This document shows positions 6,549-19,334 of a stretch of DNA of 64,000 bases, piece by piece. A program made the translations under genes and the position numbers. The stretch comes from Natronococcus sp. CG52 (GTDB lineage Archaea; Halobacteriota; Halobacteria; Halobacteriales; Natrialbaceae): contig NZ_CP099391.1 in the NCBI RefSeq assembly GCF_023913515.1, forward strand, positions 1,116,001 through 1,180,000, in the 5' to 3' direction. Under the pieces are notes generated by a model that was not told where the DNA came from, made no database searches, and saw nothing but the letters and a program-made list of their open reading frames with translations. How positions within the stretch are numbered: position 1 is the stretch's first letter; each line of letters starts with the position of its first letter.

Positions 6549-6591
6549 CAACCAAAAATGGGCAATAGTACTTGATCTAACCCAACCAAAA
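6549..6591 (+). promoter_or_regulatory. Direct repeat CAACCAAAA pair upstream of cbiT
   Basis: Two exact 9-base copies at 6549-6557 and 6583-6591, 34 bases start to start, in an AT-rich gap of ~180 bases before the long cbiT operon. The downstream copy runs into ATTGTTTTAG, a reasonable TATA-box region ~30 bases before the ATG at 6626. Placement suggests a promoter with a bound regulator, but this is inferred from position only. Confidence 0.4.
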
Positions 6592-6625
6592 TTGTTTTAG
6601 TGGATGCGACAGTCATCCTCGGGTG

Positions 6626-7243
6626 ATGCCACCCATCGCGCTGCCACACGACGCGAAGGCCGGGCCGACCAAGCCGGAGGTCCGCGCCGTCGTCCTTTCG
6701 AAACTCGCGCTCACCGGGGACGACCACTTCGCGGAGGTCGGCTCCTGTACCGGCGCCGTCACGATCGAGGCCGCACAGCGGGTCGGCCGCGTCACCGCGC
6801 TCGAGCGGAAAGGCGAACGACTCGAGACGACCGAGAAGAACCTCGCCGCGAACGAGGACGCGGTTCGAGCCGACGTCGAACTTCGCAACGCGGAGGCGCC
6901 CGAGGGGCTGCCCGCAGACGCCGACGCGCTCTTCCTCGGCGGCAGCCGCAACTTCGAGGCCGTACTCGACCACGCCGCGGAGACGGGCGTCGACCGCATC
7001 GTGATGAACGTCTCCCGGATCGAGGTCGCCGGCAGGGCGACCGAGGCGTTCCGCGAGCGGGACCTGCTCGAGGACGTCGTCCAGTTCCAGGTGAGCCACG
7101 GCTACGAACTGGCCGGCGCGACGAGTTTCGACTCCGACAACCCGGTCTACATGCTGGTCGGCAGTGCGACGCCGGCGGGAGACGACGACGAAGATGGCGG
7201 CGCGACGGTCGCCGCAGGCGGAACCGGAGGGGTCGACGGGTGA
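6626..7243 (+). CDS. cbiT: Cobalt-precorrin-6B C15-methyltransferase (decarboxylating) CbiT
   Basis: 205 residues from ATG 6626 (an in-frame GTG lies one codon upstream). Class I SAM methyltransferase: the glycine-rich loop is FAEVGSCTGAVTIEAA near residue 35, then an acidic strand end at VTALERKGE, and FLGGSRNF near residue 110 typical of CbiT. It methylates C15 and decarboxylates the C12 acetate side chain. The Ala/Gly tail after residue ~190 is not conserved in the family. Its TGA overlaps the GTG start of cbiL, so translation is coupled. Confidence 0.93.
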   Translation: MPPIALPHDAKAGPTKPEVRAVVLSKLALTGDDHFAEVGSCTGAVTIEAAQRVGRVTALERKGERLETTEKNLAANEDAVRADVELRNAEAPEGLPADADALFLGGSRNFEAVLDHAAETGVDRIVMNVSRIEVAGRATEAFRERDLLEDVVQFQVSHGYELAGATSFDSDNPVYMLVGSATPAGDDDEDGGATVAAGGTGGVDG

Positions 7244-8118
7244 CCCTTTACGGCGTCGGACTCGGACCCGGCGAGGCCGACCTCGTGACGGTCCGCGGGA
7301 AACGGGTACTCGAGGAGGCCGACGTGGTCTACTCGCCGGGCCGACTCTCCCGGACCGTCGCGCTCGAGCACGTTTCCGAGGAGCGCATCGGGGATCTCGA
7401 CTTCCCGATGACGAAAGACGAGGAGAAGCTGCGAAGCGCGTGGAAGGAGGCTGCGGCGGAGATCGCACCGAACGCTCGCGACGGCGACGTCGCCTTCGTC
7501 ACGCTGGGCGATCCGAACGTCTACTCCACGTTCGGCCACCTGCGCCGGACGATCGACGCCTTCCACCCCGACGTGGACCTCGAGATCGTCCCCGGCGTCA
7601 GCGCCGTGACGGCGTTCGCGACCGCGCTGGACGTCGAGATCGAGGCCGGCGCGGGCCTCTCGCTTCGGGAGGCCGCGAACGGCCACAGCCCGACGGGGCC
7701 GGACCGGATGATCCTCTTCAAGGTCACCGACGCGCCGGCGACCCACGAGGGGCTCGTCGACGCCGGCTACGAGGTGACCTACGGCCGACGGCTGTTCATG
7801 GAACAGGGTGAGACCCTGGTGACGGACGACCCCGCGGAGATCGACGAGCGCGACTACTACACGCTGGCCTACGCCGAGAAGGCGGATCTCGAGGTCGAGC
7901 AGGCGACGGCGGCGTTCAGGACGGACGACGACGACGCGGACGGCAGTTCGAGCGGTGGGAAGTCGAACGGGAGCGAGCCGGTCGCCGACGGTGGTGAGCC
8001 GAGTGAAACGAGGCGAACGTCGGAAGACCCGCGGTCTTCCGGAAGTGACCGGAGCGCGGACCTCGAGCGCGCCGAGGGCTGCGAACACGGCGACTGCGGA
8101 GGACACGATCATGAGTGA
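7240..8118 (+). CDS. cbiL: Cobalt-factor II C20-methyltransferase CbiL
   Basis: 292 residues from GTG 7240, which overlaps the cbiT stop. Tetrapyrrole methylase motifs in order: LYGVGLGPGEADLVTVRG at the N-terminus, VVYSPGRLS, FVTLGDPNVYSTFGH near residue 90, and EIVPGVSAVTAFA near residue 115. It adds the C20 methyl that is later lost on ring contraction. The core ends near residue 225; the remaining ~65 residues are a Ser/Gly/Asp-rich tail containing a palindromic DNA insertion (8021-8041) and ending in CEHGDCGGHDHE, a Cys/His cluster that could bind metal. The stop overlaps the cbiF start. Confidence 0.93.
   Translation: MTLYGVGLGPGEADLVTVRGKRVLEEADVVYSPGRLSRTVALEHVSEERIGDLDFPMTKDEEKLRSAWKEAAAEIAPNARDGDVAFVTLGDPNVYSTFGHLRRTIDAFHPDVDLEIVPGVSAVTAFATALDVEIEAGAGLSLREAANGHSPTGPDRMILFKVTDAPATHEGLVDAGYEVTYGRRLFMEQGETLVTDDPAEIDERDYYTLAYAEKADLEVEQATAAFRTDDDDADGSSSGGKSNGSEPVADGGEPSETRRTSEDPRSSGSDRSADLERAEGCEHGDCGGHDHE
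8021..8041. repeat. Short perfect palindrome inside cbiL
   Basis: Arms CGGAAGACC and GGTCTTCCG around a 3-base CGC loop, located in the non-conserved tail of cbiL. It resembles the palindrome in cbiE (2300-2322): same outer arm CGGAAGAC/GTCTTCCG, different inner base pairs. Confidence 0.75.
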
Positions 8119-9031
8119 CGAGACGACGGAGACGGACGGCGGCACCGGGGAGAACGATCCGCAGGACGCGATCGACGCGCAGGGGGATCGCCGCCGGGAG
8201 GAACTGGACGATCGAATATTCGAGCACAGCGCCGGCGACGAACAGGAGGGGGTCCCGTTCGTCGGCGCCGGTCCCGGCAACCCGCGGCTGCTGACGGTCG
8301 CCGGGAAGGAGCTTCTCGAGGAGGCCGACCTCGTGGTCCACGCCGGCTCGCTGGTCAACAGCGAACTCCTGGACGAGTACTGCGACCACGCCGAACTCGT
8401 CAACTCCGTGGGGAAAGACCTCGAGGAGCTGATTCCCCTCATGCGGGACGCCTACGAGGAGGGCCAGAACGTGGTTCGGCTCCACAGCGGCGACCCCGCC
8501 ATCTACGGGGCGGCCCTCGAGCAGATGGACGCCTTAGAGTACGAGGGCGTCCCGACCCACTTCGTTCCGGGCGTCACCTCGGCGTTCGCGGCCAGCGCGA
8601 CGCTGCGGACGCAGCTGACGCTCAACGAGGTCTCGAACCACGTCGCGTTCACCCGGCCGCAGGGCAAGACTCTGAGCCCGGAGGAGGACCACATCTCCGA
8701 CTTCGTCGAGATGGGCGACGTGACGACCTGCATCTACCTCGGGACCCACGCGGTCCGGGACACGATGGATCGCCTGCTCGAGGACGGCCACGACCCCGAG
8801 ACGCCGGTCGCGGTGATCTACCACGCCTCCTGGCCGGACGAGGACGTCATCGTCGGCTCGATCGGCGACATCGCGGACAGGGTCGAGGAGGCGGGCTACC
8901 GCGCCTCGGCGCTGGTCGTCATCGGCGACGCCGTGACCGGCGCGGGCTACGAGCGATCCTACCTCTACGGCGACTGGGCCAATCGCGGTTCTTCGGGAAG
9001 TTCGGGCGAGACGGAGGCCAGCGATGACTGA
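8111..9031 (+). CDS. cbiF: Cobalt-precorrin-4 C11-methyltransferase CbiF
   Basis: 306 residues. After an acidic extension of ~45 residues, tetrapyrrole methylase motifs follow: PFVGAGPGNPRLLTVAGKE, then VVHAGSLVN, RLHSGDPAIYGA near residue 125, and THFVPGVTSAFAASATL near residue 150, a pattern specific to CbiF/CobM. It methylates C11 after ring contraction. ATG 8111 overlaps the cbiL stop; the open frame extends further upstream but only through the cbiL tail. A 207-base gap holding a hairpin element separates it from cbiG. Confidence 0.94.
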   Translation: MSDETTETDGGTGENDPQDAIDAQGDRRREELDDRIFEHSAGDEQEGVPFVGAGPGNPRLLTVAGKELLEEADLVVHAGSLVNSELLDEYCDHAELVNSVGKDLEELIPLMRDAYEEGQNVVRLHSGDPAIYGAALEQMDALEYEGVPTHFVPGVTSAFAASATLRTQLTLNEVSNHVAFTRPQGKTLSPEEDHISDFVEMGDVTTCIYLGTHAVRDTMDRLLEDGHDPETPVAVIYHASWPDEDVIVGSIGDIADRVEEAGYRASALVVIGDAVTGAGYERSYLYGDWANRGSSGSSGETEASDD

Positions 9032-9238: not shown

Positions 9239-10237
9239 ATGAGTTCAGGCAGCAAGAACGCGGACGGGACGGACGACTCGAGCACAGATTCGGACGGCGG
9301 ACACTGCTCCACGCCGGATTCGGACGGCGAGGTGGCCGAAGAGATCGCGATCGTCTCCTTCGGACGGAAGATGGACACCGCCGAGGAGATCAAAGCGGAG
9401 ATCGGCGATCGCTACGAGGCGATCGAGATCCTCGAGTACCACGGCGACGTCTTCGAGGAGCACTGGGGCGAGTACGACTGCTTCATCGGTCTGATGGCCT
9501 CGGGAATCGCGATGCGCAAGACGGCCCACCTGCTCGACGACAAGTGGGACGATCCCGCGATCTGCGTGGTCGACGAGGAACTGACGTGGGCCATCCCGAT
9601 CACGGGCGGTCACCACGGTGCGAACCAGGTCGCACAGGACCTGGCGACGATGGGTGCCGTGCCGGCGATGACGACCGCCTCCGAGGCCGCGGGCAAGCAG
9701 GGCGTCGAGTCCCGAGCGAAGGCGATGGACACCCACGTCGTCAACGGCGACTCGACCGTGAAGACGAACCTCGCCGTCCTCGACGACAACCTCGGTCCCG
9801 TCGCCCGTCTCGACGGACCGCGTGCGGTGCTCGTCGGCGACGACGTAACCGTTCTCAAACGCAACAAGGACGACGGCATCGTGCTCGGAACGGGCAGCGT
9901 CTCCGGGGCGAGCAAGGAGTCGTTCCTCGCCGCCTGGGAGGAAGCGCTCGAGGAGACGGAGTACGACTTCGACGACGTCGAGTTCGTCGGTACCGCGACC
10001 CGGAAGGAAGAGGAGGAGGGACTGCTTGAGGCAGCCCGGGAACTCGACCTCGGCGTCGTCGCCTTCGACAAGGAGACCCTGCTCGCACACGAGGGGCCGA
10101 CGCCCTCGAAGTCCAAGGAGTTGATCGGCTGGCCGGGCGTCTCCGAGGCCTCCGCCATCGCCGGCGGAGCCGAGCGGGAGCTGGTGCTCGAAAAGATCGG
10201 GTACGAGAACGAGGTTACGGTGGCGATCGGTCGATGA
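9239..10237 (+). CDS. cbiG: Cobalt-precorrin-5A hydrolase CbiG
   Basis: 332 residues. It opens the delta-lactone of cobalt-precorrin-5A and releases acetaldehyde. Residues 1-35 are a polar extension with GGHCS. The N-terminal CbiG domain follows (IAIVSFGRKMDTAEEI), then the conserved middle motif DCFIGLMASGIAMRK and PITGGHHGANQVAQDLA near residues 120-135. The C-terminal CbiG domain starts near residue 195 and has VGTATRKEEEEGL and LVVAFDKETLL-like segments plus SEASAIAGG. The stop overlaps the start of cbiH (ATGA). Confidence 0.94.
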   Translation: MSSGSKNADGTDDSSTDSDGGHCSTPDSDGEVAEEIAIVSFGRKMDTAEEIKAEIGDRYEAIEILEYHGDVFEEHWGEYDCFIGLMASGIAMRKTAHLLDDKWDDPAICVVDEELTWAIPITGGHHGANQVAQDLATMGAVPAMTTASEAAGKQGVESRAKAMDTHVVNGDSTVKTNLAVLDDNLGPVARLDGPRAVLVGDDVTVLKRNKDDGIVLGTGSVSGASKESFLAAWEEALEETEYDFDDVEFVGTATRKEEEEGLLEAARELDLGVVAFDKETLLAHEGPTPSKSKELIGWPGVSEASAIAGGAERELVLEKIGYENEVTVAIGR

Positions 10238-11130
10238 GTTCCGACGCCGAACCTGCGGAGACGAGTGCGAACGCCGACCCGACGACCGGGGGCACTCCCG
10301 ACGATCACGGGACCCTCTACGTCGTCGGCATCGGCCCCGGTCTGCCGGATCACATGACGGTGAAGGCCAAACGAGTTATCGAGTCCGCCGACGTCGTCAT
10401 CGCCTCGAGTCTCTATCAGACGTTCCTCCGGGACGACGGCACGCTCCCCTCCGAGGAACGGACCGACGACGAGGGTATCGCCACCCGCGAGGACGGCTTC
10501 GAACAGGAGATCGTTCGCTCAACGATGGGACGCCAGATCGAACTCGCTCAAGCGGCGTTCGACTTCGTCCGCGAGGGGAAAGACGTCGCCCACGTCTCCG
10601 GCGGCGACCCGTCGGTGTACGGTAAGTCCGACCTCGTCTTCAAAATGGCCGAGGAGGAGGACGCAACGGATGTGCCGATCGAGATCGTTCCCGGCCTAAC
10701 CGCAGCACTCGGCGGGTCAGCGAACGTCGGCGCGCCGCTGTGTAACGACTTCTGTACGATCTCGCTGTCGGACAAGTGGCGCGGCTGGGACGAGATCGAG
10801 GAGAAGCTGCGCGCGGCGGCGATCTCGGACTTCGTGATCGTCCTCTACAACTGCTGGCGCAACTACGAGCAGGCGGTCGAGATCGTCCGCGAGGAGCGGA
10901 CCGACGACGCCCGCGTGGCGATCGTCAACGACGCCGGCCGCGCCGACGCCGGCCGGAACGGCGAGAGCGAGTTCATCACCACGCTCGGCGAGGCCGCCGA
11001 CCACGACGACAGGGTGTCGGGGATGGGTACCTCGCTCATCATCGGCAACCACGAGACCGAGACCTGGAGCAACGACGACCGAACGTACCTCGTCACCCCC
11101 CGCGGCGGGCGTGACGTCGACGACTTCTAA
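10234..11130 (+). CDS. cbiH: Cobalt-factor III C17-methyltransferase CbiH (first copy)
   Basis: 298 residues. Tetrapyrrole methylase motifs: LYVVGIGPGLPDHMTVKAKR near residue 30, VVIASSLYQTFL, VAHVSGGDPSVYGKSDL near residue 120, EIVPGLTAALGGSANVGAPLCNDFCTISLSD-type region near residue 145 (the CNDF...SLSD order is characteristic of CbiH/CobJ), and VTPRGG at the end. It methylates C17 and drives ring contraction. The gene overlaps cbiG by 4 bases and is followed by a paralogue 12 bases downstream. Confidence 0.92.
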   Translation: MSSDAEPAETSANADPTTGGTPDDHGTLYVVGIGPGLPDHMTVKAKRVIESADVVIASSLYQTFLRDDGTLPSEERTDDEGIATREDGFEQEIVRSTMGRQIELAQAAFDFVREGKDVAHVSGGDPSVYGKSDLVFKMAEEEDATDVPIEIVPGLTAALGGSANVGAPLCNDFCTISLSDKWRGWDEIEEKLRAAAISDFVIVLYNCWRNYEQAVEIVREERTDDARVAIVNDAGRADAGRNGESEFITTLGEAADHDDRVSGMGTSLIIGNHETETWSNDDRTYLVTPRGGRDVDDF

Positions 11131-11142
11131 CGAGCCACAACC

Positions 11143-12147
11143 ATGAGTACGGATACCAATGCAGACACGGACGCCGAATCGAGTTCGAAGTGCGGCGCAT
11201 CGACGAGCGAAACCGAAACCGAACCTGAGACCGGGACGAACGCCTCCTCGGGATCGAAGTGCGGGGCCTCGAGTTCGTCGTCTTCCGGTTCCAAGTGCGG
11301 CGCGTCGAACTCCGACGACGAGAGCGACTCCCACGAGCAGGAGGTCGGCGCGACCGTCGCCGACTTCGACGCCGAGCCGGGACAGCTGACCGCCGTCGGG
11401 CTCGGTCCCGGCCACCCGGAGGGGATGACCGAGCGCGCCAAGACGGCGCTGCTCGAGGCCGACCACATCGTCGGCTACACGACGTACATCGAGCTGATTC
11501 CCGACGAGATCACCGAGCAGGCCGACGAGATCTACGACACGCCGATGTGCGGCGAGGTCTCCCGCACCGAGGAGTCGATCGACCGCACGCTCGCGGGCAA
11601 CGACGTCGCCATCGTCGGCAGCGGCGATCCCAACGTCTACGCGCTGGCCGGCCTCGCACTGGAGATCCTCGAGTCCAAGGGCGCGACCGCGTCGATGGTC
11701 GAGTTCGACGTCGTGCCGGGCGTCCCGGCCGCCCAGTCCTGCGCGGCGCGGCTGGGCGCGCCGCTGGTCAACGACACCGTCTCGGTTTCGCTGTCGGATC
11801 ACCTCGTCCCGATGCCCGAGATCGAGTCGCGGCTCCACTCCGTCGCGAGCGAGAACTTCACGATCACGGTCTACAACCCGTGGAGCCGCAAGCGCCGGGA
11901 GAACTTCCAGAAGTGTTGTGAGATCCTGCTGACTCACCGCGACGCCGACACGCCGGTCGGCATCGTCCACGGCGCCGGCCGCGAGGACGAACAGGTGATG
12001 ATCACCGAACTCGGCGAACTCGAGGAACTCGGCGAGAGCGAGATAATCGACATGACGACGACGATCGTCGTCGGCACCGAGGACACCTACGTCTGGGACG
12101 ACCGGATGGTCACGCCGCGGGGCTACGAGACGAAGTACGACTACTGA
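11143..12147 (+). CDS. CbiH-like precorrin C17-methyltransferase paralogue with Cys-tagged N-terminus
   Basis: 334 residues. The methylase part (from residue ~75) has LTAVGLGPGHPEGMT, VGYTTYIELIPDEI, IVGSGDPNVYALAG, VVPGVPAAQSCAARLGAPL and VTPRGYETKYDY, so it is clearly of the CbiH/CobJ type and closer to classical CbiH than the first copy. Residues 1-70 are a Ser/Thr/Asp/Glu-rich tail with three exact copies of SKCGAS at 15-20, 38-43 and 50-55, giving three evenly exposed cysteines. Which of the two copies performs C17 methylation is uncertain; in haloarchaea both usually occur together. Followed directly by the ferredoxin gene. Confidence 0.85.
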   Translation: MSTDTNADTDAESSSKCGASTSETETEPETGTNASSGSKCGASSSSSSGSKCGASNSDDESDSHEQEVGATVADFDAEPGQLTAVGLGPGHPEGMTERAKTALLEADHIVGYTTYIELIPDEITEQADEIYDTPMCGEVSRTEESIDRTLAGNDVAIVGSGDPNVYALAGLALEILESKGATASMVEFDVVPGVPAAQSCAARLGAPLVNDTVSVSLSDHLVPMPEIESRLHSVASENFTITVYNPWSRKRRENFQKCCEILLTHRDADTPVGIVHGAGREDEQVMITELGELEELGESEIIDMTTTIVVGTEDTYVWDDRMVTPRGYETKYDY

Positions 12148-12149
12148 TC

Positions 12150-12416
12150 ATGCCGGCCTACCGGATCACCATCGAGAAGGACGCCTGCGACGGCATCTTC
12201 GCCTGCCTGACCCGCGACCCGCGGTTCGTCGAGGGAGAGGACGGCCTCGCGACGATCGACCCCGACGCGGACCCCGTCTACGACTGCGAGGGCGACGTTA
12301 CGGATACCGAACAGCAGGTCGTCGCGACGTTCGACGACGACCGCATCGACGAGGCGAAGCAGGCCGCCGCGGCCTGTCCGACGGACGCGATTATCGTCGA
12401 AGAGGTGGACGAATGA
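12150..12416 (+). CDS. Ferredoxin of the cobalamin operon
   Basis: 88 residues with C13-x5-C19, C46 and a C76-P ligand in AAACPTDAIIVEE. The C-x5-C...CP layout is that of single-cluster [3Fe-4S] or incomplete [4Fe-4S] ferredoxins rather than the usual CxxCxxCxxxCP. It begins 2 bases after cbiH2 and overlaps the next gene by 4 bases (ATGA), so it is part of the operon. It probably supplies electrons to a redox step of the pathway, either Co(II) reduction or a precorrin-6A-type reduction; the partner is not known. Confidence 0.8.
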   Translation: MPAYRITIEKDACDGIFACLTRDPRFVEGEDGLATIDPDADPVYDCEGDVTDTEQQVVATFDDDRIDEAKQAAAACPTDAIIVEEVDE

Positions 12417-13132
12417 GCGAAGCTAACCCCTCGCTCGAGATCGAGGTTCCCGCGGATCCGCTCGGGGGCCACCCTGCGAGCGCGTACCTCTGGGGTCACG
12501 TCGCCGGCAGCGGCGACGTCGGCGATACCGGTATCGAGGTCGTTACCAACGACGAGACCTCCGCACAGGTGCTGGCGGCCGTCGCAGGCGGCGACGTCGA
12601 GCACGACACGAGCAGTCGCGACTACGCCCACGACACCTCGATCACCCGGACGGAGGACGAGTACACGCTCTCGATCGGCGGTGACGAAAGCGAGGGCGGT
12701 GAGAGCGATGGAAACGGCGCTACGGGGCTGCTCGGCCGCAGCAGTGCCCTCGGCCTCCCCGTCGACGGCCGCGGCAACTACCGCTTCGGAGCCTTCTCGA
12801 GCCACGACCGAGAACTGCTTCGGGGGCTACTCGAGGGCTGTGGCACGATCTGCTTCAAGTCCAAGAGCGGCACCGTCGGCATCTCGTTCGTCCACGACGA
12901 CCGGGACCTGCTCGAGCTAACCCGGGAGCTGATCGCCGACTGTCCGGTAGACGCACCCCTCGGCGAGCTTTCCGAGACCTCCTCCGGCGGCTACTGGTTC
13001 GGCGTCGACGACGACGCCGCACCCGCCTTCGGAACGTGGCTCTACGAGAACTGCGAGGAGACCGGCTGCTTCGCCCCGAGCCGCCGCCGAAAGCTCGAGC
13101 GAAGCCTCGAGCAGGCGGAGTCGTACGACTAG
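12413..13132 (+). CDS. Cobalamin-operon protein with two degenerate LAGLIDADG-like repeats
   Basis: 239 residues of unknown function, translationally coupled to the ferredoxin (4-base overlap). Two segments line up with the LAGLIDADG motif: LWGHVAGSG at residues 26-34 and LRGLLEGCG at 136-144. Each is followed by a strand with a hydrophobic-x-hydrophobic pattern and a V(T/H)(N/D)D(E/R) segment (IEVVTNDETSAQVL and ISFVHDDRDLLELT), as in the fold of homing endonucleases and WhiA. The catalytic Asp (eighth position) is Ser33 and Cys143, so nuclease activity is not expected. A non-conserved acidic linker (90-118) joins the halves. Possible roles: operon regulator, or an unassigned enzyme or scaffold of corrin synthesis; the fold reading is my inference. 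Confidence 0.7.
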   Translation: MSEANPSLEIEVPADPLGGHPASAYLWGHVAGSGDVGDTGIEVVTNDETSAQVLAAVAGGDVEHDTSSRDYAHDTSITRTEDEYTLSIGGDESEGGESDGNGATGLLGRSSALGLPVDGRGNYRFGAFSSHDRELLRGLLEGCGTICFKSKSGTVGISFVHDDRDLLELTRELIADCPVDAPLGELSETSSGGYWFGVDDDAAPAFGTWLYENCEETGCFAPSRRRKLERSLEQAESYD

Positions 13133-13164: not shown

Positions 13165-14403
13165 ATGCATCACACGACCGACGCCGACTCCGGGACCGAC
13201 GCGCTCGCGGCCTTCGACGACGAGGCCGTTCTGCTGATCGGCCACGGCTCCAGGCGCGAGAAGTCGAACGAACAGGTGCGGGAACTGGCCGCCGACCTCG
13301 AGTCCCGGCTCGGGGTTCCGGTCGACGCCGCGTTCCTCGAACTCGCCGAGCCGTCGATCGACGAGGCGTTCGCCGAACTGGCGACGCTCGTCTCCCGGGT
13401 AACGGTCGTCCACTGCTCGCTGTTCGCCGCGAGCCACGTCAAGAACGACGTCCCGCTGGCAATCGAGCGGGGTCGCGCCGCGTACGATCTCGAGATCGAT
13501 AACGGCGCACACCTCGGGATCCATCCGGCGATCCTCGACCTGCTGGACGACCGGGCGGCCGCGGTCGAGCGAGAACTCGGCGTCGACCGCGAGCGCGACG
13601 ACGTCGCCGTCGTCGTCTGCGGCCGGGGCTCGAGCGATCCGGACGCCAACGGCGACGTGCACAAGCTGGCCCGATTACTTTACGAGGGTCGCGAGTTCGA
13701 CCGGGTCGAGGCGTCGTTCGTCGGCGTCACGGAACCGACGCTCGAGGACACCCTCCACGGGCTCTCGAAGCACCGCCCGGAGGCCGTCGTCGTCCTCCCG
13801 TACATGCTCGGCGACGGCGTCCTCACCCAGCGGATCCGGGACTGGACGGCCGACTTCGACGACGAGTATCCCTACGCCGACGCGCTGGCCGGGGACCCGC
13901 TCGGCACGGACTCGCGGCTGCTCGACGTCTTCGCCGATCGCTGGCAGGAAGCGCGGACGGAAAGCGTCGAGATGTCCTGTGACACGTGCAAGTACAAGGT
14001 CGACCTCGAGGGCTACGAGGAGGACGTCGGCGGCGCGCGAGCCATGCTCCGCGCGCTGGCTCACCGGGATGCACACGCCGACCGCGAGGCAGTCGACGAC
14101 GAGCCCCACAGCCACGACGCGCCGGGAAAGCACGTTTCGGTCTGTACGAACCGGACCTGCGCCGACACGGGTTCTCCCGCGGTGCTCGAGCGACTCCGTC
14201 AGGAGGCTCGCGACTCCGACCACTGCGACGCGCGCATCACGCGCTCGTCGTGTCTCGGGCGCTGCGGCGACGGGCCGATGGTCGCCGTCTACCCCGACGG
14301 CGTCTGGTACGGCGATGTCGGCGCGGACGACGCCGAGCGAATCGTCGCCGACCACCTCGACAGGGACCGCGTCGTCAGCGACCTCGTCGATCAGATCCTG
14401 TAG
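13165..14403 (+). CDS. cbiX: Sirohydrochlorin cobaltochelatase CbiX fused to a [2Fe-2S] thioredoxin-like ferredoxin
   Basis: 412 residues. Residues ~20-265 form two CbiX-type chelatase halves, with the metal-site His in LLIGHGSRREKSNEQ and another in VHCSLFAASHVKNDVP; the second half begins at VAVVVCGRGSSDPDAN. Then come C272-x2-C275, a His-rich linker (HAHAD, EPHSHD) and a C-terminal domain with C327-x4-C332 and C363-x3-C367 (SSCLGRCGDGPMVAVYPDGVWYGDV), the ligand pattern of thioredoxin-like [2Fe-2S] ferredoxins. It inserts cobalt early (anaerobic route). The frame is open upstream to 13036, but ATG 13165 is the first start beyond the previous gene. Confidence 0.93.
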   Translation: MHHTTDADSGTDALAAFDDEAVLLIGHGSRREKSNEQVRELAADLESRLGVPVDAAFLELAEPSIDEAFAELATLVSRVTVVHCSLFAASHVKNDVPLAIERGRAAYDLEIDNGAHLGIHPAILDLLDDRAAAVERELGVDRERDDVAVVVCGRGSSDPDANGDVHKLARLLYEGREFDRVEASFVGVTEPTLEDTLHGLSKHRPEAVVVLPYMLGDGVLTQRIRDWTADFDDEYPYADALAGDPLGTDSRLLDVFADRWQEARTESVEMSCDTCKYKVDLEGYEEDVGGARAMLRALAHRDAHADREAVDDEPHSHDAPGKHVSVCTNRTCADTGSPAVLERLRQEARDSDHCDARITRSSCLGRCGDGPMVAVYPDGVWYGDVGADDAERIVADHLDRDRVVSDLVDQIL

Positions 14404-14459: not shown

Positions 14460-14831
14460 ATGAGCTGTCACGAGATAGAAGCGGTACGACTCGGACTGAT
14501 GAACGTCCTCGGCGTCGGGGACCGGAGCACCCGCGAACACGCGGAGAAGGAACTCGAGGGACACCTCGAGGGGCCGATCGAAGGCCTCGCCGAGGCCGAG
14601 AGTCTCTCCGGGATCGAACGCCACCTGGACGCCGCGCTGGTCGATCTCGAGGAGGAGGTCGCGGCGATGGACGCGGACGACCCCGAGTACGATTACACGC
14701 GAGGGCGTCTCCTCGAGGTACGAAACGCCGAACGGGCGATCCAGCGCCTGCGCGTCCAGGGCGAGAGCGTCGTCGACGGACTCGGCGAGTCCCACGACGC
14801 GCTCCACGAGACGTTCCCCGTAGAGGAGTAA
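14460..14831 (+). CDS. DUF3209 family protein of the cobalamin cluster
   Basis: 123 residues, predicted nearly all helical, starting MSCHEIEAVRLGLMNVLG. The MSCHEIEA-LRLGLM start and a four-helix pattern fit DUF3209, a family that often lies beside cobalamin genes. No membrane segment. The Cys3-His4 pair at the very N-terminus could be a metal ligand, though this is speculative. It begins 56 bases after cbiX and ends 2 bases before the propeller gene. Confidence 0.75.
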   Translation: MSCHEIEAVRLGLMNVLGVGDRSTREHAEKELEGHLEGPIEGLAEAESLSGIERHLDAALVDLEEEVAAMDADDPEYDYTRGRLLEVRNAERAIQRLRVQGESVVDGLGESHDALHETFPVEE

Positions 14832-14833
14832 GT

Positions 14834-16114
14834 ATGGCAGAGGCAGACACCAAGCACGAACGGGATGCAGCGTTTCGACGGCACCCCCTCGGCGAAATCG
14901 AGAGCGCCCGCAGCCGACACATGTGGACTCGGTCGGCCGTCCACGCGACCGACGACGCCGTCGTCACCGGCCAGTGGAACGGGTCGGTAACGTCGTTCGA
15001 TGCCAACTCGCTCGAGCCTCGGTGGTCCGTCGAGCATCCGGATCACCCGGTCGGGATCGCGACGATCGGAAACGGCGATGACGGAAGCGAGGACACGGTG
15101 GTCGTCGCCGGACGCGGCGAGACGGGATCGATCGCGGCTCTCGACTTCGAGACGGGCGAGACCCGCTGGCGCTACGAGGCGGCCGAAGACGTCGGAACTC
15201 CGGTCAAGGACTCCGTCTTCTACCTGCCCTACGTCGTCGCGCTCGAGACCGACGGTGGAGCGGACGACGACCGACTGTACGCGGCGGCCCGCCGCTACGA
15301 GCGCGACGGTGAAACGCGGCGGTGGTACAGCACGGTCCTCGCGTTCGACGCGGACGGGACGGTCCGCTGGCGCTACGAGACGGACGCCTCACCCATCGCA
15401 CTCGACCTGAGCGACGACGGCGAACGGCTGGCGGTCGGCTACAACCGCTGTATGGGCGAGCACGACAACGGACTGGTCGTTCTCGAGGCCGACACCGGAG
15501 ACCTCGCGTGGACCTGGGACCCCGGAACCGAAGGCGACCGCCGCGTCGGCGACGTCTCGTTCGACGGCGACTCGATCGCGGTCTCGAGTCACGGCGACAA
15601 GCGGGGCTACCTGCTCGGACCCGGCGGCGCCGAGCGGTGGGCCGTCGATCTGGCAGTCAAGACCGAGATCGACGGCGAGACGCTGTACGCCTACCCGAAC
15701 CACGCGTACGCGAACGATGGGCGGGTCGTGTTCGTCACGGGGAACACCTACGCCGAAGGGAGCCGCGAGACGGAGAGCCGGCATCCGAACGAGCACCGGA
15801 TCGCCGCCTTCGACGACGGCGGTGACGTTCTCTGGGACGCAGCAGCAGAGGGGTTCGTCCACGAACTCGCGACCGACGGTGCGACGGTCGTCGCTCCCTG
15901 CGCGCAGAACTTCCGGGTGCGGAACCCCGACGCGCACGCGATCCGCTGGTTCGACCTCGAGGACGGAACCGTCGGACGGAAACGGCTCGAGGGGATCGCC
16001 ACCGGTGCGTCGGTCGACGGCGGGACGGTCGCGGCGATCGAGGAACCCGTCGCGTATCACGACGGAGACGTGACACACGGCGAGTACGCGGTCGTCCTCG
16101 GATGCCCCGAGTAG
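14834..16114 (+). CDS. PQQ/BamB-like beta-propeller protein, last gene of the cobalamin operon
   Basis: 426 residues without a signal peptide or membrane segment, so probably cytoplasmic. Repeating blades are visible as A-DFETGETRWRYE, FDADGTVRWRYET, LEADTGDLAWTWDP, GGAERWAVDLA and FDDGGDVLWDA: about seven repeats of the PQQ-type (W-motif) propeller. One Cys (C205) in YNRCMGEHDNG and a near-terminal VLGCPE stand out. No enzymatic residues can be named. Being 2 bases behind DUF3209 at the end of the cbi operon suggests a binding or scaffolding role in corrin synthesis. Confidence 0.72.
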   Translation: MAEADTKHERDAAFRRHPLGEIESARSRHMWTRSAVHATDDAVVTGQWNGSVTSFDANSLEPRWSVEHPDHPVGIATIGNGDDGSEDTVVVAGRGETGSIAALDFETGETRWRYEAAEDVGTPVKDSVFYLPYVVALETDGGADDDRLYAAARRYERDGETRRWYSTVLAFDADGTVRWRYETDASPIALDLSDDGERLAVGYNRCMGEHDNGLVVLEADTGDLAWTWDPGTEGDRRVGDVSFDGDSIAVSSHGDKRGYLLGPGGAERWAVDLAVKTEIDGETLYAYPNHAYANDGRVVFVTGNTYAEGSRETESRHPNEHRIAAFDDGGDVLWDAAAEGFVHELATDGATVVAPCAQNFRVRNPDAHAIRWFDLEDGTVGRKRLEGIATGASVDGGTVAAIEEPVAYHDGDVTHGEYAVVLGCPE

Positions 16115-16242
16115 CCGACCTCGAGTTCTGACGGATCGACGTTCCGGTAGTTCTCGATTCTTGAATTAGTGGACTGCTGTTGAACGGTCGCATACGCAAG
16201 GCAAACCACCACAACGGACACTCTCGTGTGTTCTGTCGAATA

Positions 16243-17274
16243 ATGACTGGGAGGCGAGAACCTGGCGGATCGGAAGAACGTTCGGATCCCGCATCGGTCG
16301 GATCTGGTTCAGGTCCGCTACGAACGGACGAGGACGAGACTCGAGAGGAACGCCGGATACTGACGGACGGAGGAGAGGTACAGGAAGAAGTCGAAGACAG
16401 CGAAGAAGCCGAGGAGGAACCAGACGAAGAAGCCGAAACGGAGGACGAAGAGACTGAAGAGGACGAGGAATCCGAGGAGGAACCAGACGAGACAGACGAG
16501 GAGGCCGAAGAGGACGAGGAAGCTGAAGCTGAAGACGAGGAAGCCGAAGAGGACGAGGAAGCCGAAGCTGAAGACGAAGACGAGGAAGCCGAAGCTGAAG
16601 ACGAAGACGAGGAAGCCGAAGCTGAAGCTGAAGACGAGGAAGCTGAAGAGGGGGAAGAAACCAGCGAGCACGTCGAGGACGCGGAAGACGTCTACGAGGG
16701 CGACGACACCTCGAACGTGTTGCACCTCGACCTCGACGGGCTCTTCCTCGATCTGCTCGGCCTCGAGGTCAACCTGAATCCGGTCACGCTCGACGTGTCG
16801 GCTCGACCGGGCGAGGGAAATCTGGTCGGAAACCTGCTGTCGGCAGTCACCGGACTGCTCGACGGCTCGCAGGCGCTTCTGGGCGGCGTCAAGTCGCTGC
16901 TCGAGAAGCCCAAGGAGGCGATCAGTTCGGTGCTGGGCAAGTCCAAGGAAGCGCTTACGTCTCTGGTGAGCAAGCCCCGCGAGTTCGTCAGCGAACTGCT
17001 CGGTGGCGACGAGGGTGAGGAAGAGGAAGCCGAGGACGAAGGAGACGAAAGCGAGGAGGACGGCGAGGGCCGGATCGCCTCCGGACTCGGTTCGGCAAAG
17101 GACCGAATCGCCTCCGCGCTCGGCTCGATGAAGGAGAGCCTCCGCGGACTCCTCCCGAGCTTACCCGTCGAGGAGTTCGTCGCGACGGTGGTCCGGGAAA
17201 TCCTCCAGGCACTGATCGAACAGCTTGAGCCGGACGAAGAGACTCCCGAAGAAACGTCGCAGTCTGAAGCATAA
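16243..17274 (+). CDS. Acidic-cassette protein 1: poly-acidic tract plus conserved hydrophobic domain
   Basis: 343 residues from ATG 16243 (a TTG lies in frame at 16180). Layout: polar N-terminus 1-45; an almost pure Glu/Asp/Ala tract 46-156 encoded by GAA/GAC/GAG repeats including a 27-base tandem unit; a conserved domain 157-208 that reads VLHLDLDGLFLDLLGLEV, then VTLDVSARPGEGNLVGNLLS; amphipathic helices 209-255; a second acidic run 256-276; more amphipathic helices 277-328. Sequences like the 157-208 domain also occur, from memory, in bacterial proteins of unknown function. No signal peptide or full membrane helix is clear. It starts a four-gene run with tight spacing. Function unknown; association with membrane or polymer is a guess. 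Confidence 0.8.
   Translation: MTGRREPGGSEERSDPASVGSGSGPLRTDEDETREERRILTDGGEVQEEVEDSEEAEEEPDEEAETEDEETEEDEESEEEPDETDEEAEEDEEAEAEDEEAEEDEEAEAEDEDEEAEAEDEDEEAEAEAEDEEAEEGEETSEHVEDAEDVYEGDDTSNVLHLDLDGLFLDLLGLEVNLNPVTLDVSARPGEGNLVGNLLSAVTGLLDGSQALLGGVKSLLEKPKEAISSVLGKSKEALTSLVSKPREFVSELLGGDEGEEEEAEDEGDESEEDGEGRIASGLGSAKDRIASALGSMKESLRGLLPSLPVEEFVATVVREILQALIEQLEPDEETPEETSQSEA
16555..16608 (+). repeat. 27-base tandem repeat in the acidic tract
   Basis: Two exact adjacent 27-base copies (each encoding EEAEAEDED, frame-preserving), flanked by diverged partial copies from about 16500 to 16650. GAA codons dominate here, unlike the GAG/GAC preference elsewhere, and local G+C falls. Slippage within such repeats would change tract length without breaking the frame. 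Confidence 0.8.
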
Positions 17275-17276
17275 CA

Positions 17277-17744
17277 ATGAGTGAAGAATCTAAATCCCTG
17301 ACACAGCAGATCGACTACGAAAAGATCACCGAGAACCTCGAACTCGAGGAACTCATCGAGGGGACCCAGTGGGAGGGCGAGATCGACGAGGACGAGCCAC
17401 TCGGCGAGACCCTCGGCGGACTGATCGGCGCGGTCATCGGCCGAAAGATCGGTGAAAGTCTCGGGAAAACTATCGGCGGACTCGTCGTCGAGGAGCTGCT
17501 CAGTCCCGGCAAGGACGAAGACGAGGAAGACGAAAGCGAGGGTGAGGACGAGGCGGAAGCTGAGGACGAGGACGAAGAAGACGAAAGCGAAGATGAGGAA
17601 GCGGAGGGCGACGACGGAGCCGACGAGTCCGAGAGCGAGGAGTCGGACTCGGACGAGAGCGACGACGAAGCCGACGGGGCGGACGACGAATCCGAAAGCG
17701 AGAACTCCGTAGAGGACGAAGACGAGGACGAGGGTGGAGACTAG
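17277..17744 (+). CDS. Acidic-cassette protein 2: glycine-zipper segment with acidic tail
   Basis: 155 residues, starting 2 bases after the previous stop. Residues 5-40 form charged helices; residues 47-69 read GGLIGAVIGRKIGESLGKTI, a glycine-zipper pattern (small residue every fourth position) able to pack tightly into helical pairs or insert in a membrane; residues 79-155 are almost entirely Asp/Glu/Ser/Ala. No catalytic motif. The zipper closely resembles that in the next gene, so the two products may assemble with each other. Function unknown. Confidence 0.78.
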   Translation: MSEESKSLTQQIDYEKITENLELEELIEGTQWEGEIDEDEPLGETLGGLIGAVIGRKIGESLGKTIGGLVVEELLSPGKDEDEEDESEGEDEAEAEDEDEEDESEDEEAEGDDGADESESEESDSDESDDEADGADDESESENSVEDEDEDEGGD

Positions 17745-17789
17745 CCATGCAACCGAGTTCTCTCGTACGACCGGCTCGAGGTGGAGCCG

Positions 17790-18488
17790 ATGAGTGAGGA
17801 CTCCGGACTGAAAGAAATGGTCACCGACGAGGTCACCGAACAGGTCGACGTCGCGGATCTGCTCGGCGACGGCAGTCTCAAGGACAATCTCGACGGCGGC
17901 GACGTCGGTGCGGCCGTCGGTCGCAAGTTCGGCGAGCAATTCGGACGCGAGATCGGCGCCCAGATCGGCGGAGAGATTCAGGCAACGCTCAAACAGGGTA
18001 TCGAGGAGGGCAAGAACCTCCGCGAAATCCTCTCGGAACTCGTGTCGGCGATTCGGACGGCGATCACCGAGGCGATCAGCAGCGTCGTCGGCGAGGACGC
18101 CCTCTCGTCGGTGGCCGGCAGCCTCACCGACGGCGAATCGGAAGAAGCCGAGGAAGCCGAAGATGAGGAAGCCGAGGAGGAGGACGAAACCGAGGCCGAA
18201 GACGAGCAGGAGACCGAAGCCGAGGAAGAAGACGAAGCGGCCGACTCCGCGGAGGAACCCGACGAGCCGTCCGTCGAGGAACTCGAGGATCTCCGACGCG
18301 GGACGCTCGAGGACTTCCTGGGCGTAATGTCGTACCAGGACCTGCAGTCGGTCGCCAAGGACGTCGGCGTCAAAGCGAACCTCAGCCGCGAGGAAATGAC
18401 CGAACAGATCATCGAGACGGTTGCGGACGAGAAGGGCGACGAGTCCGACGGGGACGACGGAAACGAGGCGGAAGCCGAGTCGGCGTAA
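17790..18488 (+). CDS. Acidic-cassette protein 3: glycine zipper, acidic linker and SAP/Rho-N-like tail
   Basis: 232 residues from ATG 17790 (a GTG at 17781 is in frame). Residues 38-61 are a glycine zipper (VGAAVGRKFGEQFGREIGAQ); 62-113 amphipathic helices; 114-160 an acidic linker; 161-213 a compact helical unit with LEDFLGVMSYQDLQSVAKDV and NLSREEMTEQIIE, the helix-turn-helix rhythm of SAP or Rho N-terminal domains, which often bind nucleic acid. That combination of a self-packing segment with a possible nucleic-acid-binding tail is unusual. 45 bases follow the previous gene; 42 precede the next. Confidence 0.76.
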   Translation: MSEDSGLKEMVTDEVTEQVDVADLLGDGSLKDNLDGGDVGAAVGRKFGEQFGREIGAQIGGEIQATLKQGIEEGKNLREILSELVSAIRTAITEAISSVVGEDALSSVAGSLTDGESEEAEEAEDEEAEEEDETEAEDEQETEAEEEDEAADSAEEPDEPSVEELEDLRRGTLEDFLGVMSYQDLQSVAKDVGVKANLSREEMTEQIIETVADEKGDESDGDDGNEAEAESA

Positions 18489-18530
18489 CCCTCTCGACTA
18501 CTCCGACCACCACCGAAACGGTATCGAACC

Positions 18531-19334
18531 ATGACCGAACAACTCCACGACCGAATCACGGAACTCCTGGACGCAGCTAGCACCGAAAGCGGCTCGCTAG
18601 CGGTTCCGGACGAAAACGACGGCGATGACCGCGAACTTCTCAAACTCGCCGACGAGGCGGCCGACATCATCGAGTCGACCGACCCCGGCGAACTGCTCGA
18701 GGCGGTCGGCCTCGGAACGCTTTCTGACGGGACCGAGCCCGAGACGCTCCCGGAGGCGATCACCAAGGGCGAACCGGAGCACGTCGAGGAGCTCCAGCGA
18801 CTGGTACGCCTCGCGAGGCTCACAGATCGGTCGGAGGAGGACGAACTCGAGGACGTGATCGACGAACTTCGAGAGACGACAACTGAGGAGGACGAGACGA
18901 TGACGGAGGATACCGACGACGAAACCGACGAGACCGACGAGGCCGAACGGGACTCGACGAGCGATGACGAAGCCGGCGGTGAGGCGGGCGAGGATGCGAC
19001 CGGCGAACTCGAGGACCGCCTTCGGTCGGCGATGAGTTCGTCGTTCGAGGAGTTCGGCGACGAGATCGAATCGATGAAAGACCGGCTCGAGGAGGCGACC
19101 GCCTCGGACGACGAGAGCGACGCCGGCGAACACGACGAGGAAGAGGAGGACGGAGAAGGCGAGACCGGGGAAGGAGACGACGATGACGGCGGACTCCTCG
19201 GATCCGGCGACGGAGGTGGACTCGGCGGCTCGAGCGGCTCGTCTCGCCACTCGACGATGGCGCCGCCGCCCTCCGAACGGGCGGATATGCGGGCGGTGAA
19301 GCGACACTCGACGATGCCGAAGAAGAACGAGTAG
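18531..19334 (+). CDS. Acidic-cassette protein 4: helical acidic protein with basic RHSTM tail
   Basis: 267 residues. Residues 1-115 are predicted helices (LHDRITELLDAASTE, DEAADIIESTDPGELLEAVG, EELQRLVRLARLTDR); 116-150 and 180-225 are acidic linkers around an amphipathic segment (RLRSAMSSSFEEFGDEIESM); 226-240 Gly/Ser-rich; the last 27 residues switch to basic and carry two RHSTM motifs (RHSTMAPPPSERADM and VKRHSTMPKKNE). A positively charged tail at the end of an otherwise very acidic protein may bind the acidic partners or a membrane. Function unknown. Last of the four-gene run. Confidence 0.76.
   Translation: MTEQLHDRITELLDAASTESGSLAVPDENDGDDRELLKLADEAADIIESTDPGELLEAVGLGTLSDGTEPETLPEAITKGEPEHVEELQRLVRLARLTDRSEEDELEDVIDELRETTTEEDETMTEDTDDETDETDEAERDSTSDDEAGGEAGEDATGELEDRLRSAMSSSFEEFGDEIESMKDRLEEATASDDESDAGEHDEEEEDGEGETGEGDDDDGGLLGSGDGGGLGGSSGSSRHSTMAPPPSERADMRAVKRHSTMPKKNE

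What the first reader, a model, noticed from the sequence alone, without database searches (positions are those of the whole stretch)
12413..13132. Catalytically dead LAGLIDADG-like protein embedded in the cobalamin operon
Two halves of the 239-residue product carry LWGHVAGSG and LRGLLEGCG, which align position by position with LAGLIDADG, each followed by similar strand-helix patterns. The Asp needed for DNA cleavage is Ser or Cys in both. The gene is coupled by ATGA to a ferredoxin and followed by cbiX. This suggests a homing-endonuclease fold recruited as an operon regulator (compare WhiA), or as an unassigned enzyme or scaffold. No cbiJ (precorrin-6A reductase) or cbiD is visible in this window.
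Basis: partly seen in the sequence, partly recalled or inferred. Interest (0 to 1): 0.75.

Follow-up and report, generated by a model that had tools for sequence, protein, structure and literature searches.

The report
Retired DNA-cutter fold in B12 operon
A gene of unknown function inside the vitamin B12 operon of salt-loving archaea turns out to have the shape of a DNA-cutting homing endonuclease that can no longer cut; it is tied to a small iron-sulphur protein and is found in nearly every haloarchaeon that makes the corrin ring, except mainly those that live without oxygen.

Summary
Window 12413-13132 encodes a 239-aa protein, the apparent orthologue of unassigned HVO_B0055. AlphaFold2 gives a confident fold (pLDDT 86.6), and the 43 best PDB matches are all LAGLIDADG proteins, WhiA first. 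Pfam LAGLIDADG_3 hits both halves in different homologues, just below cut-off. In 108 homologues motif 2 never has the catalytic acid (Cys in 107). Motif 1 keeps Asp in 23, so 'dead in both' fits this clade, not the whole family. An invariant C143-x3-C147 pair replaces the acid. The gene occurs in 145 of 150 haloarchaea with CbiG and 0 of 142 without; its start overlaps the ferredoxin stop in 73 of 76 loci. Two points weaken the regulator reading: saddle strands poor in Lys/Arg, and the operon's one conserved cis-element is equally conserved where the gene is absent. Four genomes (three lacking COX1; one the anaerobe Halodesulfurarchaeum) carry a minimal operon without ferredoxin, this gene, DUF3209, PQQ protein or CbiX's 2Fe-2S domain, and still lack CbiD and CbiJ. 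That argues against it being the missing CbiD/CbiJ. Best guess: a domesticated, non-cutting ferredoxin partner in redox or metal handling near cobalt insertion. Fold: solid. Function: inference.

The parts
12413..13132 (+). LAGLIDADG-fold protein, 239 aa, apparent orthologue of HVO_B0055 (unassigned, cobalamin cluster)
   Evidence: literature status (PMC8305020)
12488..12514 (+). Motif 1, residues 26-34 LWGHVAGSG; position 8 is Ser33 (Asp in 23 of 108 homologues)
12818..12844 (+). Motif 2, residues 136-144 LRGLLEGCG; position 8 is Cys143 (107 of 108)
12839..12853 (+). C143-x3-C147, conserved Cys pair replacing the catalytic acid of motif 2 and in the following strand
   Evidence: C143 107/108, C147 108/108
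12150..12416 (+). Ferredoxin (Fer4_15), 88 aa, apparent orthologue of HVO_B0056; stop overlaps start of the LAGLIDADG gene (ATGA)
13165..14403 (+). CbiX cobaltochelatase with C-terminal thioredoxin-like 2Fe-2S domain (about 14125-14349)
14460..14831 (+). DUF3209 protein (PF11483), absent from the minimal operons
14831..16114 (+). PQQ-repeat beta-propeller protein, absent from the minimal operons (start approximate)
6577..6599 (+). Conserved cis-element CTANNNCAANCNNNATTGTTTT upstream of cbiT; present with and without the LAGLIDADG gene
6623..7243 (+). cbiT
7240..8118 (+). cbiL
8105..9031 (+). cbiF (start approximate)
9239..10237 (+). cbiG
10234..11130 (+). cbiH1 (candidate C1 methyltransferase in PMC8305020)
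11143..12147 (+). cbiH2, with a Cys-rich CGA-repeat N-terminal tail

Best explanation
The protein is a domesticated, non-cutting LAGLIDADG-fold protein (shown by fold, profiles and loss of the catalytic acids). It works as the dedicated partner of the ferredoxin encoded just before it (inferred from conserved translational coupling and joint absence). Both belong to an accessory module of the haloarchaeal cobalt-early corrin pathway, together with DUF3209, the PQQ protein and the 2Fe-2S domain of CbiX. I infer that the module serves redox or metal handling at or near cobalt insertion, for instance keeping cobalt, a chelatase cluster or a tetrapyrrole intermediate reduced when the pathway runs in air. 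The conserved C143-x3-C147 pair, placed where the endonuclease kept its metal-binding acid, is the likely working site. Shown: fold, lost acids, Cys conservation, tie to CbiG, coupling, joint absence. Inferred: the partnership, the redox role and the step.
For: Fold and family. Cysteine pair. Tie to corrin synthesis: in 145 of 150 CbiG-positive and 0 of 142 CbiG-negative genomes, inside the cbi cluster in all but one of the loci annotated. Start overlaps the ferredoxin stop in 73 of 76 loci. Minimal operons (G125, G129, G222, G324) lack ferredoxin, this gene, DUF3209, PQQ and the CbiX 2Fe-2S domain together. COX1 is absent from 4 of 292 genomes; the 3 of these that have CbiG all carry the minimal operon (Fisher P 1.8e-5 for absence of the gene). 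G129's contig length, 2,085,946 bp, equals that of the anaerobic sulphur respirer Halodesulfurarchaeum formicicum HSR6 (PMC5437934). In G080 the gene is replaced by a second cbiX between ferredoxin and cbiX. Halobacterium makes cobalamin aerobically with the anaerobic branch (PMC3403918).
Against: The minimal operons form one clade in the CbiG tree, so joint absence is essentially one evolutionary event and the link to anaerobes rests on two host lineages. One COX1-positive genome (G324) carries the minimal operon and G080, also COX1-positive, lost only this gene, so it is not strictly needed in air.
Confidence: 0.42

Rival explanations
1. A WhiA-like transcription regulator of the cbi operon that binds DNA through the LAGLIDADG saddle, perhaps sensing redox state through the Cys pair or the ferredoxin.
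For: Best PDB match is WhiA; WhiA works with the Fe-S protein WhiB (PMC4850268); LAGLIDADG proteins read long, near-unique sites and the cbi cis-element is long and occurs once or twice per genome; C-terminal R224 and K227 are invariant.
Against: The cis-element is as conserved in 5 of 5 genomes lacking the gene (13-15 of 15 positions). Saddle strands hold 7% Lys+Arg and 17% Asp+Glu against 12-16% and 10-12% in haloarchaeal LAGLIDADG enzymes. No HTH; no WhiA family hit in 25 members.
Confidence: 0.2
2. It fills one of the two pathway gaps, CbiJ-type reduction of cobalt-precorrin-6A (with the ferredoxin as donor) or CbiD-type C1 methylation.
For: CbiD and CbiJ are each found in 0 of 194 haloarchaea, and PMC8305020 names the cluster's four unassigned genes as candidates; near-perfect co-occurrence with CbiG; adjacent ferredoxin.
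Against: All four unassigned genes are absent from the minimal operons, whose genomes still lack CbiD and CbiJ and show no replacement gene in the cluster. G080 lost only this gene. No nucleotide-, flavin- or SAM-binding family hit.
Confidence: 0.15
3. A structural scaffold that organises the corrin enzymes or delivers intermediates, with the Cys pair only stabilising the fold.
For: Fixed place amid the cbi enzymes; many invariant aromatic and glycine residues.
Against: Conservation of both cysteines at the former active centre is stronger than fold stability would seem to require; specific coupling to a ferredoxin.
Confidence: 0.18
4. A decaying or mobile homing endonuclease caught in the operon.
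For: Fold and motif remnants.
Against: One fixed position in the operon across the class, strong conservation and no second acid in any homologue examined.
Confidence: 0.01

Closest known systems
WhiA / DUF199 (3hyi, 8dy7)
   Same: Two-fold LAGLIDADG domain without nuclease role; top PDB structural match; its partner WhiB is a Fe-S protein
   Different: WhiA has a C-terminal HTH and is a bacterial transcription factor; here no HTH, archaeal, in a biosynthetic operon, with a Cys pair at motif 2
LAGLIDADG homing endonucleases (I-DmoI, I-Tsp061I, haloarchaeal intein-type domains; PF14528)
   Same: Fold, both motif positions, C-terminal helix register
   Different: Never both catalytic acids; fixed operon gene, not mobile; saddle poor in Lys/Arg
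HVO_B0055 of Haloferax volcanii (PMC8305020)
   Same: Apparent orthologue by cluster position; listed there as function unassigned
   Different: No fold or mechanism was given in the text read
AhbA/AhbB sirohaem decarboxylase (title in the reference list of PMC7242693)
   Different: Different fold and reaction; function proven there, not here

Membership tests
LAGLIDADG fold superfamily | Two alpha-beta-beta-alpha-beta-beta halves, each led by a LAGLIDADG helix | tested here: met
   element order H21-33 E E H E E / H125-143 E E H E H; first 43 PDB matches all LAGLIDADG
LAGLIDADG fold superfamily | Significant sequence-profile relation | tested here: met
   Pfam scores in individual members are just below the gathering cut-off
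Active LAGLIDADG homing endonuclease | Acidic residue at position 8 of both motifs | tested here: not met
   motif 2 is Cys in 107 of 108; motif 1 Asp in 23 of 108
Active LAGLIDADG homing endonuclease | Mobile, inserted in intron or intein at varying sites | tested here: not met
   the same place in the cbi operon in all but one locus
WhiA | C-terminal helix-turn-helix domain | tested here: not met
   no WhiA family hit; the protein ends with one helix 222-238
WhiA | Sequence-specific DNA binding | not testable with these tools
   only indirect evidence against
CbiJ/CobK (PF02571) and CbiD (PF01888) | Family profile match | tested here: not met

The most novel reading that the evidence does not exclude
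A LAGLIDADG fold turned from cutting DNA to small-molecule chemistry: a ferredoxin-coupled redox or metal protein of B12 synthesis with a C-x3-C site at the former nuclease centre. It would be the first LAGLIDADG protein known to me with a role outside nucleic acids, and part of an add-on that lets the 'anaerobic' corrin pathway run in air.
Probability: 0.3. Interest if true: 0.85.

Novelty: new variant of a known kind. Interest (0 to 1): 0.62.

Why it matters
Haloarchaea make B12 by the cobalt-early ('anaerobic') route while mostly living in air, and two of its steps have no known enzyme. This gives a fold to one of the four unassigned cluster genes and shows that a natural minimal operon lacks all four. 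That argues against looking for CbiD and CbiJ among them, and proposes instead an accessory redox module linked to aerobic life. It also adds to the domesticated LAGLIDADG proteins beyond WhiA, in an archaeal biosynthetic operon. A single deletion in Haloferax volcanii can test it.

Tried and rejected
Single-sequence Pfam and NCBIfam scans and a profile search of PDB sequences gave nothing; the relation shows only with homologues, profiles and structure. A literature search for LAGLIDADG with cobalamin and haloarchaea gave no paper; HVO_B0055 is named in one held paper. I expected the conserved cbi cis-element to support the regulator reading; it did not, because genomes without the gene keep it. 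Gap-filling as CbiD/CbiJ was favoured at first and lowered after the minimal operons were read. H73 as a metal ligand with the Cys pair was considered, but no coordinates were available to test it. In-frame TGA flags in a few homologues were checked in two of the flagged genomes (L128, L129): both have an uninterrupted ORF.

Full report
WHAT IS THERE. Window 12413-13132 (+) encodes a 239-aa protein between a ferredoxin gene (12150-12416) and cbiX (from about 13165), inside cbiT-L-F-G-H1-H2-fdx-[this]-cbiX-DUF3209-PQQ. By sequence alone it matches no Pfam or NCBIfam family. From the cluster layout it is the counterpart of HVO_B0055, one of four genes listed as unassigned in the Haloferax volcanii cobalamin cluster, where two pathway gaps (EC 2.1.1.195, CbiD; EC 1.3.1.106, CbiJ) remain open (PMC8305020).

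FOLD. Foldseek against PDB: WhiA 3hyi first (E 4.5e-6), then I-DmoI, I-Tsp061I and the bI3 maturase; the first 43 entries are all LAGLIDADG proteins. The viral library again gave LAGLIDADG and intein-type proteins. Pfam LAGLIDADG_3 is matched by 13 of 25 homologues, best E 2.5e-4, in the first half of some and the second half of others, always slightly under the curated cut-off in the members examined. hhalign against haloarchaeal LAGLIDADG endonuclease domains, taken by a PF14528 search, aligned 181 columns from residue 19 to 231 (P 1.1e-4). Its formal probability is only 56%; the two endonuclease subgroups alone gave P 0.005 and 0.023, and shuffled controls against those subgroups reached 0.047 at best. 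Together the fold is secure.

ACTIVE SITE. Across 108 homologues position 8 of motif 1 is Ser in 71, Asp in 23, Asn in 9, Gly in 3 and Ala in 2; position 8 of motif 2 is Cys in 107. No homologue examined has both acids. C143 and C147 are conserved in 107 and 108 of 108; W27, G28, H73, G138, E141, G144, G156, S158, F196, Y211, R224 and K227 are invariant. The nuclease is gone and something else at the same place is under strong constraint.

DISTRIBUTION. In one draw of 292 haloarchaeal genomes the gene is in 145, CbiG in 150, and every carrier has CbiG (Fisher P about 1e-78, not corrected for kinship). In a phylum-wide sample all hits are in the same order. CbiD and CbiJ are in 0 of 194 haloarchaea each, while the same searches ring in control genomes. 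Of 78 loci annotated, all but one (L115, a divergent 198-aa copy next to cation-efflux genes) have cbi genes around the gene. Its start overlaps the ferredoxin stop in 73 of 76.

THE EXCEPTIONS ARE THE MOST TELLING. Five CbiG genomes lack the gene. G080 keeps the rest of the operon but has a second cbiX exactly where the gene should be. G125, G129, G222 and G324 have a minimal operon, cbiT-L-F-G-H1-H2-X, with no ferredoxin, LAGLIDADG gene, DUF3209 or PQQ gene, a CbiX without its 2Fe-2S domain and a CbiH2 without its Cys-rich tail. They still lack CbiD and CbiJ and show no substitute gene in the cluster. COX1 is missing from only four of the 292 genomes (G125, G129, G195, G222); the three of these that have CbiG all carry the minimal operon. 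G129's contig is 2,085,946 bp, the published size of Halodesulfurarchaeum formicicum HSR6, an anaerobic sulphur respirer. Caution: the minimal operons form one clade in a CbiG tree although their hosts belong to three families, so this is one operon type shared by a few hosts, and G324 is COX1-positive.

REGULATOR OR NOT. Upstream of cbiT lies a strongly conserved element, CTANNNCAANCNNNATTGTTTT, at about -45 (window 6577-6599). It is present in 60 of 60 carriers and 5 of 5 non-carriers (13-15 of 15 positions; shuffled maximum 12) and occurs once or twice per genome in nearly all of the genomes searched. Since it persists without the gene, another factor must read it at least there. The predicted DNA-facing strands hold 7% Lys+Arg and 17% Asp+Glu; comparable segments of haloarchaeal LAGLIDADG enzymes hold 12-16% and 10-12% (segments of the comparators were chosen by eye). 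Both points lower the regulator reading without excluding it.

MECHANISM. I commit to a ferredoxin partner within an accessory redox or metal-handling module near the CbiX step, used by haloarchaea that run the cobalt-early pathway in air (Halobacterium is reported to make cobalamin aerobically, PMC3403918). Shown: fold, lost acids, conserved Cys pair, co-occurrence with CbiG, coupling with the ferredoxin, joint absence of the module. Inferred: physical partnership, redox or metal chemistry, the step, and the link to oxygen. Probability about 0.42.

KNOWN OR NEW. The gene and its unassigned status are known; I found no report of its fold (the supplement of PMC8305020 was not readable here, so the authors may discuss it there). 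It is a new variant of a known kind, a domesticated LAGLIDADG protein, in a new setting.

Noticed in passing
window 6577-6599: Deeply conserved cis-element upstream of cbiT, near-unique in each genome searched and independent of the LAGLIDADG gene; its reader is unknown.
   Followed up: partly
window 11143-11400 and 14125-14349: Cys-rich CGA-repeat tail on CbiH2 and 2Fe-2S domain on CbiX; both are missing from the minimal operons. CbiL also ends in a Cys/His-rich tail.
   Followed up: partly
L134:9703-10644: In G080 a second cbiX occupies the place of the LAGLIDADG gene between ferredoxin and cbiX.
   Followed up: partly
L135, L136, L137, L138: Minimal cbi operon type shared by hosts of three families, forming one clade in the CbiG tree, which suggests horizontal transfer of the operon.
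   Followed up: partly
L115:5826-6422: Divergent 198-aa homologue in G142 outside the cbi cluster, next to a rhodanese-like gene and cation-efflux genes.
   Followed up: no
window 16180-19334: Run of highly acidic, low-complexity proteins just after the B12 operon.
   Followed up: no
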